Origin: Bacteroidaceae bacterium
GTDB lineage: Bacteria > Bacteroidota > Bacteroidia > Bacteroidales > Bacteroidaceae
Direction of reading: 5' to 3'
Assembly (NCBI GenBank): GCA_017555845.1
Contig: JAFZFO010000065.1
Location: 1-32,450 of the forward strand
Length of the DNA stretch: 32,450 nucleotides
The notes beneath the pieces are model-generated. The model was not told where the DNA came from. It made no database searches and saw nothing but the letters and a program-made list of their open reading frames with translations. Shown piece by piece: positions 1,943 through 5,153 of this stretch. The position numbers and the translations under genes are program-made. Each line of letters begins with the position of its first letter. The first letter of the stretch is position 1.

Positions 1943-1960
1943 AAAGGATAACCAAACAGG

Positions 1961-2161
1961 GATGGGCGAGCAAAGCGAAGCCAATGCCTCCCAACCTAAC
2001 AGTCTCACGTTTTCACATTTCAGCTTTCTGCTTTCACATTTCCGCTGGGATGGGCGAGCGAAGCGAAGCCAATGCCTCCCAACCTAACAGTCTCACGTTT
2101 TCACATTTCAGCTTTCTGCTTTCACATTTCCGCTGGGATGGGCGAGCGAAGCGAAGCCAAT
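1961..2161 (+). repeat. Tandem repeat, 88-bp period, 2.3 copies
   Basis: Units 1961-2048 and 2049-2136 differ at one base (caaagc versus cgaagc). A third copy stops after 25 bases at 2161. Each unit starts GATGGGCGAGC and contains the phrases TTTTCACATTTCAGC and GCTTTCACATTTCCGC. No credible gene is encoded: the overlapping frames are only repeat translations. Confidence 0.9.
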
Positions 2162-2242
2162 CCCTACTCCTTATTTTAAAAAGCCACGAACCCGAAGAAG
2201 AGGAATGACCCACCTTCAATACAATAAACAATCTTCATTATG

Positions 2243-2316: not shown

Positions 2317-2817
2317 TTATTTCGCCCTGTCTAACATTACAAATATCTTGTTCAATTTAATTATTGGCTTTCCTAAATAAGTTGAGATATTATAAGCGTT
2401 CTGCTTTGCATAATCAACAATTGTATTGCGGATGTCGTTGGTATAGTATATGCCGAGAATTTTCTTTTCAGCCAGTCCTTGCCAGTCTGCTGGTGTATTT
2501 AATTCTGTGATGATATTTGTTCTGCCAATCCCCAAGGCAAGAGCCACCAGACTATTGCAAAAATCGCCACGCTCGGCAACGGGTTCAATGCTAAAAGCAG
2601 ATTTTACATCATCAACAAACTTTTTTATCATTAACAAATCTTCAAACAAATTCAATTCTACAATACAGTCAAGTTCAGCCTTTACCATTTCGGTAATTGA
2701 ACCTTCGGGATTACCATAGATTTTCTTTATCCCCCAGTTTGTTTGAAAAATCAACGATTCAATCAATGCCTTTTGCTTAATGGCGTTACTTCTGTTTTGT
2801 AGATGCCTGTTCCTCAT
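2317..2817 (-). CDS. Small protein resembling a segment of DNA polymerase III alpha (DnaE), catalytic part absent
   Basis: A 166-residue protein starting MRNRHLQNRSN, of uncertain function. By eye, residues around KKIYGNPEGSITEMVKAELD and the following part up to NSLVALALGI align with the DnaE stretch that enters the palm: family pattern RYG-P, then RLEYEL-VI--MGF, then GPGRGSAAGSLVAYALGIT. Here the GRGS core reads ERGD, and the PDxDxDF catalytic motif that should follow is missing. DnaE is over 1000 residues, so this is either a fragment or a repurposed domain. It is transcribed away from the WYL gene, 186 bases apart, with similarly low GC. No catalysis should be assumed. The DnaE resemblance is my own unaided recognition and could be wrong. 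Confidence 0.5.
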   Translation of the reverse strand: MRNRHLQNRSNAIKQKALIESLIFQTNWGIKKIYGNPEGSITEMVKAELDCIVELNLFEDLLMIKKFVDDVKSAFSIEPVAERGDFCNSLVALALGIGRTNIITELNTPADWQGLAEKKILGIYYTNDIRNTIVDYAKQNAYNISTYLGKPIIKLNKIFVMLDRAK

Positions 2818-3003
2818 ATTAGTATTGTTTTATTACTCTATATTATACGAAAGAATCTGTTGCTTTCAATATGAAACAACACAAAGGTCTGCATAAACAA
2901 TGCATACCTCTATGAAAATTTAAATTTTGGAAAAACACTCAACCCTGTGTGATGATTTATTATAAAATTCCAATATATTTGTGGCATACAGTAGATGTAA
3001 ATT

Positions 3004-3909
3004 ATGATAAGCAAGACATTTAACCGTTACATTTGGTTGCTGAATACACTCCTTCAACATAAGCAACTTTCCTATGAAGAAATCAATGTTTTATGGAAGG
3101 GATGTCGCTTGGGAGATGGTGCTCCGTTGCCGTTACGCACCTTCCACCAACATAAAAATGCAGTTGAGGAGTTGTTTGGTATTGAAATAAAATGCAATCC
3201 TTCAAATGGATACAAATATTACATATCTACTCCCGATGCATTGAAAAATAACAGTATCCGCAAATGGCTATTGAATTCTTTCACCCTATCAAATATGATA
3301 ACAGCGGGGCATAATATGAAAGAGAGAATACTGTTTGAGGATATACCGCGTGGAACAGAATATCTGCAAACTGTTATTGAGGCAATGCAAAAATCAAAAG
3401 AACTGCAAATTGATTATCAGCAGTTCTATGGGCATAGGAAAATATATAATATTCAGCCCTATGCCATGAAGGTTTATCATCAACGCTGGTATGTAGTCGG
3501 TTATATTAAAGAGTTGGGCGCTATAAGGAACATTGCACTTGACCGCACTCTTGAAATGAATTTATTAGACACGCCATTTAAATTGCCGAAGAATTTCAAT
3601 GCAAAGAAGTACTATGCCAACACTGTTGGAATATATGTAAATGAAGGACTCAACCCCGTCAAGGTTAAGATAAGAGCCTATGGTATGCAAATAGAATATT
3701 TGCGCTCTTTGCCGCTCCATAGTTCTCAAAAGGAAAGTACTTCAAAATATGGCGAGTTCTGTGATTTTGAATACAAATTATGCCTGACACCCGAACTCTC
3801 AACCCACATACTTGCTATGGGCGAAAATGTAGAGGTATTGGAGCCTGTGGAATTGAGAGAGGAAATAAAGAGAAAATTAACAGAATGTTTAACTAAATAT
3901 AAATTATAA
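3004..3909 (+). CDS. WYL-domain transcriptional regulator
   Basis: A 301-residue DNA-binding regulator. The N-terminal part (about 1-75) looks like a winged helix-turn-helix (YEEINVLWKG, LRTFHQHKNAVEELFG). Residues 118-190 form the WYL domain with the signature RWYVVGY at 161-167 and the downstream IRNIALDRT motif. Residues about 215-295 fit the C-terminal WCX extension, ending ELREEIKRKLTECL. WYL proteins are ligand-sensing regulators, and several repress phage-defence operons (CapW and BrxR types). The nuclease gene starts four bases after this stop, so both are probably on one mRNA and the protein may control its own operon. The start ATG follows an AT-rich leader; no clear Shine-Dalgarno is seen, which is normal for Bacteroidetes. 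Confidence 0.85.
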   Translation: MISKTFNRYIWLLNTLLQHKQLSYEEINVLWKGCRLGDGAPLPLRTFHQHKNAVEELFGIEIKCNPSNGYKYYISTPDALKNNSIRKWLLNSFTLSNMITAGHNMKERILFEDIPRGTEYLQTVIEAMQKSKELQIDYQQFYGHRKIYNIQPYAMKVYHQRWYVVGYIKELGAIRNIALDRTLEMNLLDTPFKLPKNFNAKKYYANTVGIYVNEGLNPVKVKIRAYGMQIEYLRSLPLHSSQKESTSKYGEFCDFEYKLCLTPELSTHILAMGENVEVLEPVELREEIKRKLTECLTKYKL

Positions 3910-3913
3910 AATT

Positions 3914-4726
3914 ATGGATTTTACAAGTTTATTATCTCAAGCATATTCAGATGCTGGCATAAAGACAAAAGTTATGAATACGCAAATAGTTTGCATAGAG
4001 CCTATTATTCCTTTATCAAAGGAACAGCAAAATCAGTTATTGGAGGGTGATGGGCAAAAAAACAAAAATGAGTATAAGCAGATAAATTCTTCAACAGGTT
4101 TAGCAGTGAATTATTATAAAATTCTTGAAGATACAGGAAATATTGAAAAACTTCAGTTTGAAGAAAAAGTTGAGAAACCTCTTAAAATAAAAGGTGGAAG
4201 AAAGGCAAATTTAGATGTTGCATATAAGAGTGAGGGGAAACAATATTATATAGAAAGCAAATTCTTGGAGCCATATTATTCTGGTAATGAGCATAATACT
4301 GAATCATATTTCAATAAAGAATATTATGATGTTCCAGATAATGATATGGATGCTTGGTATGCTCTGTTGCTTGATGCCCAGAATTATAAGATTTACAATT
4401 TCTCGCAATTATGTAGGCATTTAATGGCGATATGGCGAAAGCATAAAGAAGATAAGCAATTGGATATAGTTTTCCAAAGTGTTATATGGAAAATGACCGA
4501 CAAGTTTATTGAAAATATAGATAACGAAGAAGATAAAGAAATACTGCGTTCGCGTATAATTGTAATTGACAAAGAAGCAAAATCTGCTAAAAGTAGAATA
4601 GATAAATTCCTTGCAGATATTGACTGGAAAAACATTACTTTTGAGAGTGTATACTATAATGATATTCTTGAAGATATTTCATTTTCAAAATATTGTTCTG
4701 AATTTAAACAACGGTATTTCTTGTAA
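3914..4726 (+). CDS. Putative PD-(D/E)XK restriction-type nuclease
   Basis: A 270-residue soluble protein without signal peptide or membrane segment. Residues 96-122 show a PD-(D/E)XK-like core: a strand with D101 (RKANLDVAYK), a turn, then the strand YYIESKFLEPY carrying E114 and K116, the D-x12-E-x-K pattern of this nuclease fold. The ESKFxEPY phrase reminds me of the PGN_0703-type putative restriction endonucleases of Bacteroidetes, recalled from memory only. The rest is helical and charged. It sits four bases after the WYL regulator and 46 bases before a sigma-factor fragment, in an AT-rich block that looks acquired. A role in defence against foreign DNA is inferred. No methyltransferase is adjacent, so it is not a standard type II restriction-modification pair. 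Confidence 0.55.
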   Translation: MDFTSLLSQAYSDAGIKTKVMNTQIVCIEPIIPLSKEQQNQLLEGDGQKNKNEYKQINSSTGLAVNYYKILEDTGNIEKLQFEEKVEKPLKIKGGRKANLDVAYKSEGKQYYIESKFLEPYYSGNEHNTESYFNKEYYDVPDNDMDAWYALLLDAQNYKIYNFSQLCRHLMAIWRKHKEDKQLDIVFQSVIWKMTDKFIENIDNEEDKEILRSRIIVIDKEAKSAKSRIDKFLADIDWKNITFESVYYNDILEDISFSKYCSEFKQRYFL

Positions 4727-4772
4727 ATAAATCTTTGTCTATGCAAAGTTTTTGCACACCATTGTATTCTCA

Positions 4773-5153
4773 ATGCCTATAAAGGAAAATCCTTTTCGTA
4801 TATATTATAGAGAAACCTATAATCAGCAATATATGGAAAAGATAAAAACAAAGGTGTGTGAGAATGAACAGTGCCTCTCTATTGAAGATGAATTGCAACT
4901 TATAAAGGATATAAAATCAAAGGGTACTGAAAGAGAGTTGGCAATAGAAAAACTTTCTCATTCAAATTTACGCCTTGTAACTGCTGTTGCAAAAATGTTC
5001 AAAGATTGCAACTTGTCTATGGAAGAACTTATAAGCACAGGTAATGAGGGATTAGTATTGGCCGCTGAAAAGTATGACGAGTCAAGTGGCTTTAAGTTTA
5101 TGAGTTATGCCGTTTGGTGGATAAGGCAAAGTATAATGCAAAAGATACAATAA
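4773..5153 (+). CDS. Sigma-70 family fragment limited to regions 1.2 and 2
   Basis: A 126-residue protein from the ATG at 4773; a TTG seven codons upstream is possible but less likely. Residues 32-60 match sigma region 1.2 (CLSIEDELQLIKDIK). Residues 61-100 match regions 2.1-2.2 (SNLRLVTAVAKMF, LISTGNEGLVLAAEKYDE). Residues 101-126 match 2.3 and the start of 2.4 (GFKFMSYAVWWIRQSIM). It closely follows the housekeeping RpoD of Bacteroidetes, then stops at IMQKIQ. Regions 3 and 4, which read the -35 element and contact the beta flap, are absent, and neither frame after the stop continues the family. It could bind core polymerase or -10 DNA, be a decoy, or be a truncated remnant. It lies 46 bases after the nuclease gene on the same strand. 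Confidence 0.8.
   Translation: MPIKENPFRIYYRETYNQQYMEKIKTKVCENEQCLSIEDELQLIKDIKSKGTERELAIEKLSHSNLRLVTAVAKMFKDCNLSMEELISTGNEGLVLAAEKYDESSGFKFMSYAVWWIRQSIMQKIQ

What the first reader, a model, noticed from the sequence alone, without database searches (positions are those of the whole stretch)
2317..5153. AT-rich cassette: DnaE-like fragment, WYL regulator, PD-(D/E)XK nuclease and truncated sigma factor
Seen: a visibly AT-rich block between a tRNA-Ser region and a ribosomal operon, with WYL and nuclease genes four bases apart, a sigma fragment 46 bases later and a divergent small gene. Known: WYL proteins (CapW, BrxR) control phage-defence operons, and PD-(D/E)XK folds are common effectors. Inference: this may be an undescribed defence module in which the regulator silences a nuclease that works with, or is controlled by, polymerase-like and sigma-like mimics. 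No integrase, methyltransferase or known system signature is present.
Basis: partly seen in the sequence, partly recalled or inferred. Interest (0 to 1): 0.75.

Follow-up and report, generated by a model that had tools for sequence, protein, structure and literature searches.

The report
Nuclease cassette with dead host-enzyme copies
A gut bacterium carries a small, swappable gene cassette that pairs a probable DNA-cutting enzyme and its control protein with broken copies of the cell's own DNA polymerase and transcription factor, and a sister cassette does the same with copies of two other essential proteins, which suggests decoys in a so far undescribed virus defence.

Summary
The cassette is real and conserved: pseudo-DnaE (-), WYL regulator, nuclease, truncated sigma. 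Among 44 genomes of the genus, 11 loci carry this WYL; pseudo-DnaE is adjacent in 8 of 9 assessable loci, truncated sigma in 9 of 10. Two genomes of another family carry the same four genes. The frame is fixed but the nuclease is swapped: five sequence groups share the slot, and loci with near-identical frames (dS about 0.2) hold nucleases without detectable sequence similarity. The pseudo-DnaE is the DnaE palm without its catalytic aspartates (motif in 0 of 16). The sigma fragment keeps its -10-binding face but lost E407, recalled as a core contact (16 of 16; kept in 12 of 12 RpoDs of the genus). Ten of ten cassette genomes tested also have a normal RpoD. Many mimic genes share an upstream operator/promoter-like element. 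A second WYL cassette type, one copy in the window's own genome, has a PD-(D/E)XK nuclease plus an FtsZ without GTP motif and, in three genomes, an ATPase-dead GyrB/ParE. Reading: WYL-controlled, nuclease-exchangeable defence cassettes carrying dead copies of essential host machines, most likely decoys or baits for phage takeover proteins. Decoy function is inferred, not tested. No match as a system in PADLOC or the papers searched.

The parts
2317..2817 (-). Pseudo-DnaE: 166-aa stand-alone homologue of the DnaE palm, catalytic Asp motif absent
   Evidence: dN/dS median 0.18
2838..2853 (-). Promoter-like box CTTTCGTATAATATAG upstream of pseudo-DnaE (read on the - strand)
2886..2908 (.). Near-perfect palindrome GGTcTGCAT-aaaca-ATGCAtACC, candidate WYL operator, in the divergent intergenic region
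2974..2981 (+). TATATTTG, conserved -7-type element of the WYL-nuclease transcript (TAnnTTTG consensus recalled)
   Evidence: present in 10 of 10 aligned intergenic regions
3004..3909 (+). WYL/WCX transcription regulator, 301 aa
   Evidence: PF13280 6.5e-12, PF25583 4.7e-08; dN/dS median 0.09
3914..4726 (+). PD-(D/E)XK nuclease, REase-ARP family PF22558; occupant of the exchangeable slot; NLD..ESK motif
   Evidence: slot exchange
4739..4760 (.). Imperfect second copy of the TGCA..TGCA palindrome, upstream of sigma (better palindromes at the same place in L020, L023, L101, L102)
4793..4810 (+). Promoter-like box TTTTCGTATATATTATAG upstream of sigma, like the one before pseudo-DnaE
4833..5153 (+). 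Truncated sigma-70 paralogue, 106 aa, regions 1.2-2.4 only
   Evidence: dN/dS median 0.22
1959..2165 (.). 88-bp direct repeat (2 full copies and a partial one) between tRNA-Ser and the cassette; edge of the variable site

Best explanation
This is a mobile, WYL-controlled phage-defence cassette with a fixed frame (WYL regulator, pseudo-DnaE, truncated sigma) and an exchangeable PD-(D/E)XK nuclease. Proposed working: the WYL dimer controls the divergent promoters through the palindromes and responds to a ligand made in infected or damaged cells (ssDNA or nucleotides, by analogy with CapW, BrxR, DriD and PafBC). On induction the nuclease attacks DNA, and the dead copies of the replicative polymerase and housekeeping sigma act as decoys or baits: they offer surfaces that phage takeover proteins bind while not joining the host machine. 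Shown by sequence: gene content, conservation, co-location, nuclease exchange, loss of catalytic residues and of sigma E407, a shared upstream element before many mimic genes, recurrence with FtsZ and GyrB/ParE. Inferred: WYL binding, DNA cleavage, defence role. Least certain: the decoy step.
For: Frame: of 11 genus loci with this WYL, pseudo-DnaE adjacent in 8 of 9 assessable (one of the 8 with an interrupted frame), sigma in 9 of 10 assessable; the same four genes in 2 genomes of another family. Exchange: G031 vs G034:C50 have dS 0.18 (pseudo-DnaE), 0.23 and 0.12 (WYL ends) but a DUF6946 nuclease versus a 230-aa one without detectable similarity; window vs G401 dS 0.19 (pseudo-DnaE) and 0.17 (sigma) with different nucleases; G034:C50 and G401 share a nuclease group at pseudo-DnaE dS 1.40. 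DUF6946 was placed in the PD-(D/E)XK clan (PMC10584680). Dead mimics: PDxDxDF in 0 of 16 pseudo-DnaEs, 25 of 27 DnaE ORFs; E407 lost in 16 of 16 short sigmas, kept in 12 of 12 RpoDs of the genus and 3 of 3 longer paralogues, while F427, W433, W434 and Q437 are kept in 16 of 16. dN/dS medians 0.09-0.22. A normal RpoD coexists in 10 of 10 genomes tested. Recurrence: second cassette type with pseudo-FtsZ (GTP signature lost in 4 of 4) and pseudo-GyrB/ParE (N-box and lid lost in 3 of 3) beside WYL and PDDEXK_4 nuclease. Composite promoter/operator-like element before mimic genes. Defence link: the second-type nuclease matches PDC-S26 and an accessory phosphoesterase PDC-S10, candidate defence families.
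Against: No assay and no structure model. No phage protein is known that binds the mimics. G014 has WYL plus nuclease without either mimic, so they can be kept apart. Other recalled core-contact positions of sigma are not all lost: N409 is kept in 13 of 16 and D403 is mostly E, so loss of core binding is not shown. Longer sigma paralogues of genus g24 keep E407; two of the three also keep region 3 and may be working sigma factors. PADLOC finds no named system for the four genes beyond generic WYL and partial MzaA/Cas3c-type matches. Some cassette genes are interrupted (pseudo-DnaE of G013, WYL of G034:C29 and of G401). The similarity of the two type-1 operator sites alone hardly exceeds shuffles. 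The TTTCGTA box is absent before the pseudo-GyrB and pseudo-FtsZ genes, and the type-2 palindrome beside FtsZ could be a terminator.
Confidence: 0.5

Rival explanations
1. Dominant-negative poisons: on induction the dead polymerase palm and sigma domain 2 jam host (and phage) replication and transcription while the nuclease cuts DNA, a three-fold abortive-infection toxin set.
For: Truncated, catalytically dead relatives of essential enzymes; shared upstream elements suggest joint control; -10-binding residues kept; N409 kept in 13 of 16.
Against: E407, recalled as a core-binding residue, is lost in 16 of 16 short sigmas, the opposite of what a competitor for core needs; the pseudo-DnaE lacks the C-terminal regions that (recalled) bind clamp and tau; pseudo-FtsZ and pseudo-DnaE share no obvious poisoning surface.
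Confidence: 0.2
2. Tethers: the mimics dock the nuclease on RNA polymerase, replisome, topoisomerase or divisome so that cleavage is aimed at active phage DNA.
For: Conserved co-location of mimics and nuclease.
Against: Five sequence groups of nuclease sit on one frame and are exchanged, so a conserved docking interface is unlikely; E407 is lost; FtsZ is not a DNA machine.
Confidence: 0.1
3. Regulatory parts: the sigma fragment (and perhaps pseudo-DnaE) helps the WYL protein control the cassette promoters, as PafBC works by adapting the housekeeping sigma.
For: PafBC, a WYL protein, acts through sigma adaptation (PMC11804915, start of abstract in the listing); the sigma fragment keeps its -10 face; unusual promoter-like box before mimic genes.
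Against: Does not explain dead DnaE, GyrB/ParE and FtsZ copies in like positions; G014 keeps WYL and nuclease without them.
Confidence: 0.12
4. Restriction-type selfish cassette or toxin-antitoxin-like element, with host-gene fragments picked up and kept for stability rather than defence.
For: AT-rich, variable site, transfer between families; nuclease without methyltransferase among the four genes; interrupted copies in some genomes.
Against: dN/dS medians of 0.09-0.22 and the same sigma end in 9 of 10 genus-type copies with a visible end (window) argue that each gene is used; partners belong to candidate defence families.
Confidence: 0.08

Closest known systems
WYL-controlled defence operons (CapW/CBASS, BrxR/BREX)
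   Same: WYL regulator gene next to effector genes with a palindrome in the promoter region (CapW: abstract read; BrxR: start of abstract in a listing)
   Different: Effector is an exchangeable stand-alone nuclease; carries dead host-enzyme copies; no CBASS or BREX signature among the four genes
REase-ARP (PF22558), DUF6946 (PF22187), PDDEXK_4 (PF14281) / PDC-S26 nucleases
   Same: Slot proteins of the two cassette types are members of these families
   Different: Families of single proteins; here several of them share one conserved frame
MZA system, protein MzaA
   Same: Also carries a sigma-70 region-2 domain in an anti-phage system (NCBIfam NF041931 matched at 2.8e-22)
   Different: Score 79.4 against a cut-off of 800; the MzaA profile is 726 long; no other Mza match among the four proteins
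Decoy ideas in prokaryotic conflict systems (inactive nuclease domains in BREX-related systems, PMC12839542; decoy interactions, PMC7159879)
   Same: Inactive domain or effector proposed to intercept phage inhibitors or invader interactions (passages read)
   Different: In the first, dead copies of the defence nuclease itself; in the second, decoys of no named host machine in the passage seen; here dead copies of essential host machines

Membership tests
REase-ARP nuclease (PF22558) | Profile score above the curated cut-off | tested here: met
   39.3 bits against 27
PD-(D/E)XK nuclease | D..(E/D)xK motif conserved in the family | tested here: met
   NLD..E(S/A)K in 5 of 5 aligned relatives, one of them (G028) only 19% identical
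PD-(D/E)XK nuclease | Fold of the restriction endonuclease superfamily; cleavage of DNA | not testable with these tools
   Structure jobs not accepted, interrupted or switched off; no PDB sequence match of this kind
WYL regulator | WYL and WCX domains | tested here: met
   PF13280 and PF25583 above cut-off
DnaE replicative polymerase | Catalytic PDxDxDF motif and the full domain set | tested here: not met
   Palm only; motif 0 of 16
Sigma-70 factor | Regions 2 to 4 | tested here: not met
   Only regions 1.2-2.4
MZA system | MzaA at full score with the other Mza genes | tested here: not met
   79.4 bits against 800; no other Mza family matched by the four proteins
BREX / CBASS | Signature genes beside the WYL gene | tested here: not met
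   PADLOC scan of the four proteins finds generic WYL and a Cas3c match on the WYL protein, MzaA and a weak NsnC match on sigma; genes further away in the window were not scanned
Phage defence system | Protection against phage | not testable with these tools
   needs experiment

The most novel reading that the evidence does not exclude
Bacteroidaceae keep a 'paralogue-decoy' immune system: WYL-switched cassettes that hold an exchangeable nuclease together with catalytically dead, trimmed copies of the very host machines phages attack (DnaE, RpoD, GyrB/ParE, FtsZ). The copies soak up or sense phage takeover proteins, a bacterial counterpart of plant decoy immunity, and the nuclease is the swappable killing arm.
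Probability: 0.4. Interest if true: 0.95.

Novelty: categorically new. Interest (0 to 1): 0.85.

Why it matters
If the decoy reading holds, bacteria use dead copies of their own essential proteins as bait, and each cassette would name a host protein that phages of gut Bacteroidales attack: polymerase, sigma, topoisomerase and FtsZ. That makes the little-known host-takeover proteins of these phages directly fishable with the mimics as baits. Even if the mimics act otherwise, a fixed frame with nuclease exchange is a useful model of how defence effectors are swapped.

Tried and rejected
Phage or plasmid origin: pseudo-DnaE none in viral contigs and plasmids, nuclease none in phages and viral contigs, WYL none in viral contigs. 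Decay of a pseudogene in the window: rejected, dN/dS well below 1 and no stops in the rows used (rows known to be interrupted or cut were not put in). Sigma fragment as the host's only sigma: rejected. Repeated recruitment of sigma from each host's own RpoD: tree inconclusive, long branches. A PHP piece of DnaE in L151 (7005-7568): Pfam E 0.0046, below cut-off, and no match to 27 DnaE ORFs better than E 0.57, so not claimed. The slot28-type genes (A6, 7 members) match no Pfam nuclease; only the D..ExK motif by eye and in alignment speaks for them. PDB sequence search with the nuclease gave only weak Rad50 matches, E 0.1 or worse. Paper searches by words (REase-ARP, DUF6946, WYL with sigma factor, polymerase, paralog, decoy or MBL terms, MzaA, E407, phage inhibitors, mimic phrases, CapW/BrxR/DriD) found no description of this system in titles, abstract starts and the passages opened; one search returned unrelated papers only. 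My script's tRNA scan of the G033 region and nine others printed nothing, probably a fault of the script, and is not used.
Full report
1. What is there. The window is contig C57 of a 2.08-Mb, 83%-complete genome. A 94%-identical nuclease relative sits in a named Bacteroidaceae MAG from water-buffalo colon. Between tRNA-Ser (1731-1816) and ribosomal-protein genes lies an AT-rich block (33.6% GC against 49.0%) with four genes: pseudo-DnaE on the minus strand, then WYL regulator, PD-(D/E)XK nuclease and a sigma-70 fragment on the plus strand. The sigma start at 4773 is open only in this window; the conserved start is 4833.

2. The cassette recurs. Counting the window's own genome, the nuclease is in 4 of 150 related genomes and the pseudo-DnaE in 11 of 150. 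Among 44 genomes of the genus, 11 loci hold this WYL (ten at 75-100% identity over the whole length, one cut by a contig end; ten further matches, 27-40% identical, are other WYL genes). Reading their surroundings: pseudo-DnaE is adjacent and divergent in 8 of 9 loci where it could be seen (absent in G014; two loci end at contig ends), and sigma lies downstream in 9 of 10 (absent in G014; one locus cut). Two genomes of another family of the order, G401 and G231, have the same four genes, the pseudo-DnaE of G401 being 95% and the WYL of G231 94% identical to the window: recent transfer. Not all copies are whole: the pseudo-DnaE of G013 and the WYL genes of G034:C29 and G401 have interrupted frames, and the pseudo-DnaE of G231 is cut by the contig start.

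3. The nuclease slot is exchangeable. Between WYL and sigma (in G014 after WYL; in G042 before sigma at a contig start) there are five sequence groups: REase-ARP of the window's type (window, G003, G034:C29), a second REase-ARP type (G043, G014), DUF6946 (G031, G013, G231, G042, G019), a 230-aa group without Pfam match (G034:C50, G401) and a 312-aa protein (G028). BLASTP at E<=0.01 among one representative of each finds no direct match; the G028 protein matches a distant relative of the window's nuclease (7.8e-06) and is probably a far member of that group. The two REase-ARP types meet only in the Pfam model. Each group shows D..(E/D)xK (by eye; aligned), and DUF6946 has been placed in the PD-(D/E)XK clan (PMC10584680, passages read). 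So the slot occupants are probably all of one fold, but of very different sequence. Synonymous distances show the exchange directly: G031 and G034:C50 are close in pseudo-DnaE (0.18) and WYL (0.23, 0.12) but differ in nuclease group; window and G401 likewise (0.19, 0.17). Conversely G034:C50 and G401 share a nuclease group on frames whose pseudo-DnaEs are at dS 1.40. Window and G003 share the nuclease (dS 0.19) while their pseudo-DnaEs are at 0.94.

4. The mimics are dead, trimmed relatives of host enzymes. The pseudo-DnaE profile matches 350 of 393 genomes of the order, the listed matches outside the cassette kind lying in long DnaE ORFs, and PDB 5lew residues 322-397 (E 3e-4). The catalytic PDxDxDF motif is in 25 of 27 DnaE ORFs (collected by their GPGRGS motif) and in 0 of 16 pseudo-DnaEs; GRGS is also in 0 of 16. 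Relatives in other genera have palm-plus-finger pseudo-DnaEs of 309-432 aa (L027, L148, L151) or a finger piece (L157). Sigma: the fragment spans sigma70 343-443. In other genera the cassette sigma runs from nearly full length (L148, L150; 79% to RpoD) through region 3 missing (L159) to regions 2+4 (L027; L157, by eye) and region 2 only (L107, L151, window). Of 16 short forms all have lost E407, which I recall as a core-binding position (Sharp et al. 1999, recalled, not read), while F427, W433, W434 and Q437 are kept in 16 and Y430 in 15; 12 of 12 RpoDs, all from this genus, and 3 of 3 longer paralogues keep E407. Against this, N409 is kept in 13 of 16 and D403 is E in 15 of 16, so loss of core binding is a guess. 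A separate normal RpoD exists in 10 of 10 cassette genomes tested, and a second sigma in 9 of these 10 (not G056). Median dN/dS: pseudo-DnaE 0.18 (9 rows, 29 of 36 pairs usable), sigma 0.22 (9 rows, 36 of 36), WYL 0.09 (8 rows, 21 of 28), nuclease 0.16 (3 rows, 3 of 3); interrupted or cut rows were not included.

5. A second cassette type repeats the design. Six more distant WYL loci of the genus (33-35% identity, one in the window's own genome, G000:C34) were read: L113-L118. Downstream of WYL stand a PDDEXK_4 nuclease (L113, L114, L117) or a weak uracil-glycosylase-like gene (L116; below cut-off), a small protein with HExxH by eye (L113, L114, L116) and a short FtsZ relative (L113, L114, L116, L117). 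Divergent from the WYL gene in G025, G035 and G040 (L113, L116, L115) is a 371-aa copy of the GyrB/ParE ATPase-transducer part; such copies were listed in 3 of 150 relatives, 37-47% identical to the long canonical relatives. Short FtsZ copies were found in 5 of 44 genus genomes plus a fragment in G013, beside canonical FtsZ. The FtsZ copies lost the GGGTGTG signature in 4 of 4 (kept in the FtsZ of 7 of 7 loci). The GyrB/ParE copies lost the N-box Glu/Asn and the GLNGVG lid in 3 of 3, against three aligned canonical relatives (motif names recalled). So the layout (dead host protein, WYL plus nuclease, dead host protein) exists with different host proteins, fully only in G025; in G035 the nuclease place holds the glycosylase-like gene. 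L114 and L117 have no GyrB-like gene at the divergent place, and L115 and L118 are cut by contig ends.

6. Common control. The pseudo-DnaE/WYL intergenic region has TATATTTG before WYL (10 of 10) and a palindrome GGTnTGCA-N7-TGCAnACC (window 2886-2908); a like palindrome, imperfect in the window, lies before sigma. About 46 nt further comes a box around TTTCGTA: exact TTTCGTA lies within 130 nt upstream of 7 of 13 pseudo-DnaE and 11 of 16 sigma genes, and before none of the 3 large pseudo-DnaEs, 3 pseudo-GyrBs and 4 pseudo-FtsZs examined. A pattern for the composite found 28 places in 53 sources (748,607 bases, both strands), 20 of them directly upstream of pseudo-DnaE or sigma genes (L018 and L030 are the same genome), 8 elsewhere; the only two in the window are in the cassette. 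I wrote the pattern after seeing the sites, so the count describes and does not test. The plain 22-base similarity of the two sites (17-19 matches) hardly exceeds shuffles (maxima 16-18). In the second type a palindrome ACCTCTGCC-N7-GGCAGAGGT or close to it lies before WYL/GyrB-like and before the HExxH-FtsZ pair in G025 and G035; in G000 and G022 it lies on the FtsZ side, with a weaker CTATGCCA palindrome before WYL. The FtsZ-side copy is followed by T runs and could be a terminator.

7. Wider setting. Using a metallo-beta-lactamase/RMMBL protein that follows sigma in G019 as anchor, 35 of 201 family genomes have it. In the 20 neighbourhoods fetched a gene matching one of my slot profiles stands just before it in 16, a phosphoesterase (PDC-S10 type) near it in 5, a WYL gene in 6, and pseudo-DnaE or cassette sigma in 5 (L148, L150, L151, L157, L159) (L157's sigma). 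Some of these slot families have only the motif to show that they are nucleases. The cassette site is variable: in G033, the closest match at this region, the stretch between the ribosomal genes and the tRNA-Ser region holds other ORFs and the same repeats, without the cassette.

8. Mechanism. WYL proteins repress or activate on binding ligands (CapW: abstract; PafBC and DriD: abstract starts). The proteins copied here, DnaE, sigma, type II topoisomerase and FtsZ, have little in common except being essential and, from recall, targets of phage inhibitors (for example AsiA for sigma70, T7 Gp0.4 and lambda Kil for FtsZ). Loss of activity and of a host-interface residue with retention of other surfaces is what a decoy needs. 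Poison, tether and regulator readings are given as rivals. My odds: real conserved system about 0.95; defence role about 0.75; decoy or bait role about 0.4.

9. Limits. Genomes are mostly fragmented MAGs, so absences at contig ends were set aside. No structure model could be made. The library of papers is open-access only.

Noticed in passing
G000:C34 (L114:5758-9501): The window's own genome holds a second WYL cassette with PDDEXK_4 nuclease, HExxH protein and pseudo-FtsZ.
   Followed up: yes
L110, L111, L112: Other WYL genes of the genus stand with two proteins that look like DUF262 (by eye, from memory), in L110 and L111 also with a DnaQ-like exonuclease; the one in L110 matches PDC-S48 in PADLOC.
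   Followed up: partly
window:1959-2165: 88-bp tandem repeat (two full copies and a partial one) after tRNA-Ser; related repeats at the same place in G033 and a short match near the pseudo-DnaE of G401.
   Followed up: partly
window:6418-6600: A dispersed repeat of about 180 bp upstream of the L28 gene occurs in many copies in this genome and its relatives, perhaps a MITE or REP-like element.
   Followed up: no
L101:9214-9685: Three similar copies of a TATCGTATAAT-bearing repeat beside the pseudo-DnaE of G401.
   Followed up: no
L140-L159: Metallo-beta-lactamase/RMMBL gene, usually with a preceding PD-(D/E)XK-like gene and sometimes a phosphoesterase, recurs across the family with or without the mimics.
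   Followed up: partly
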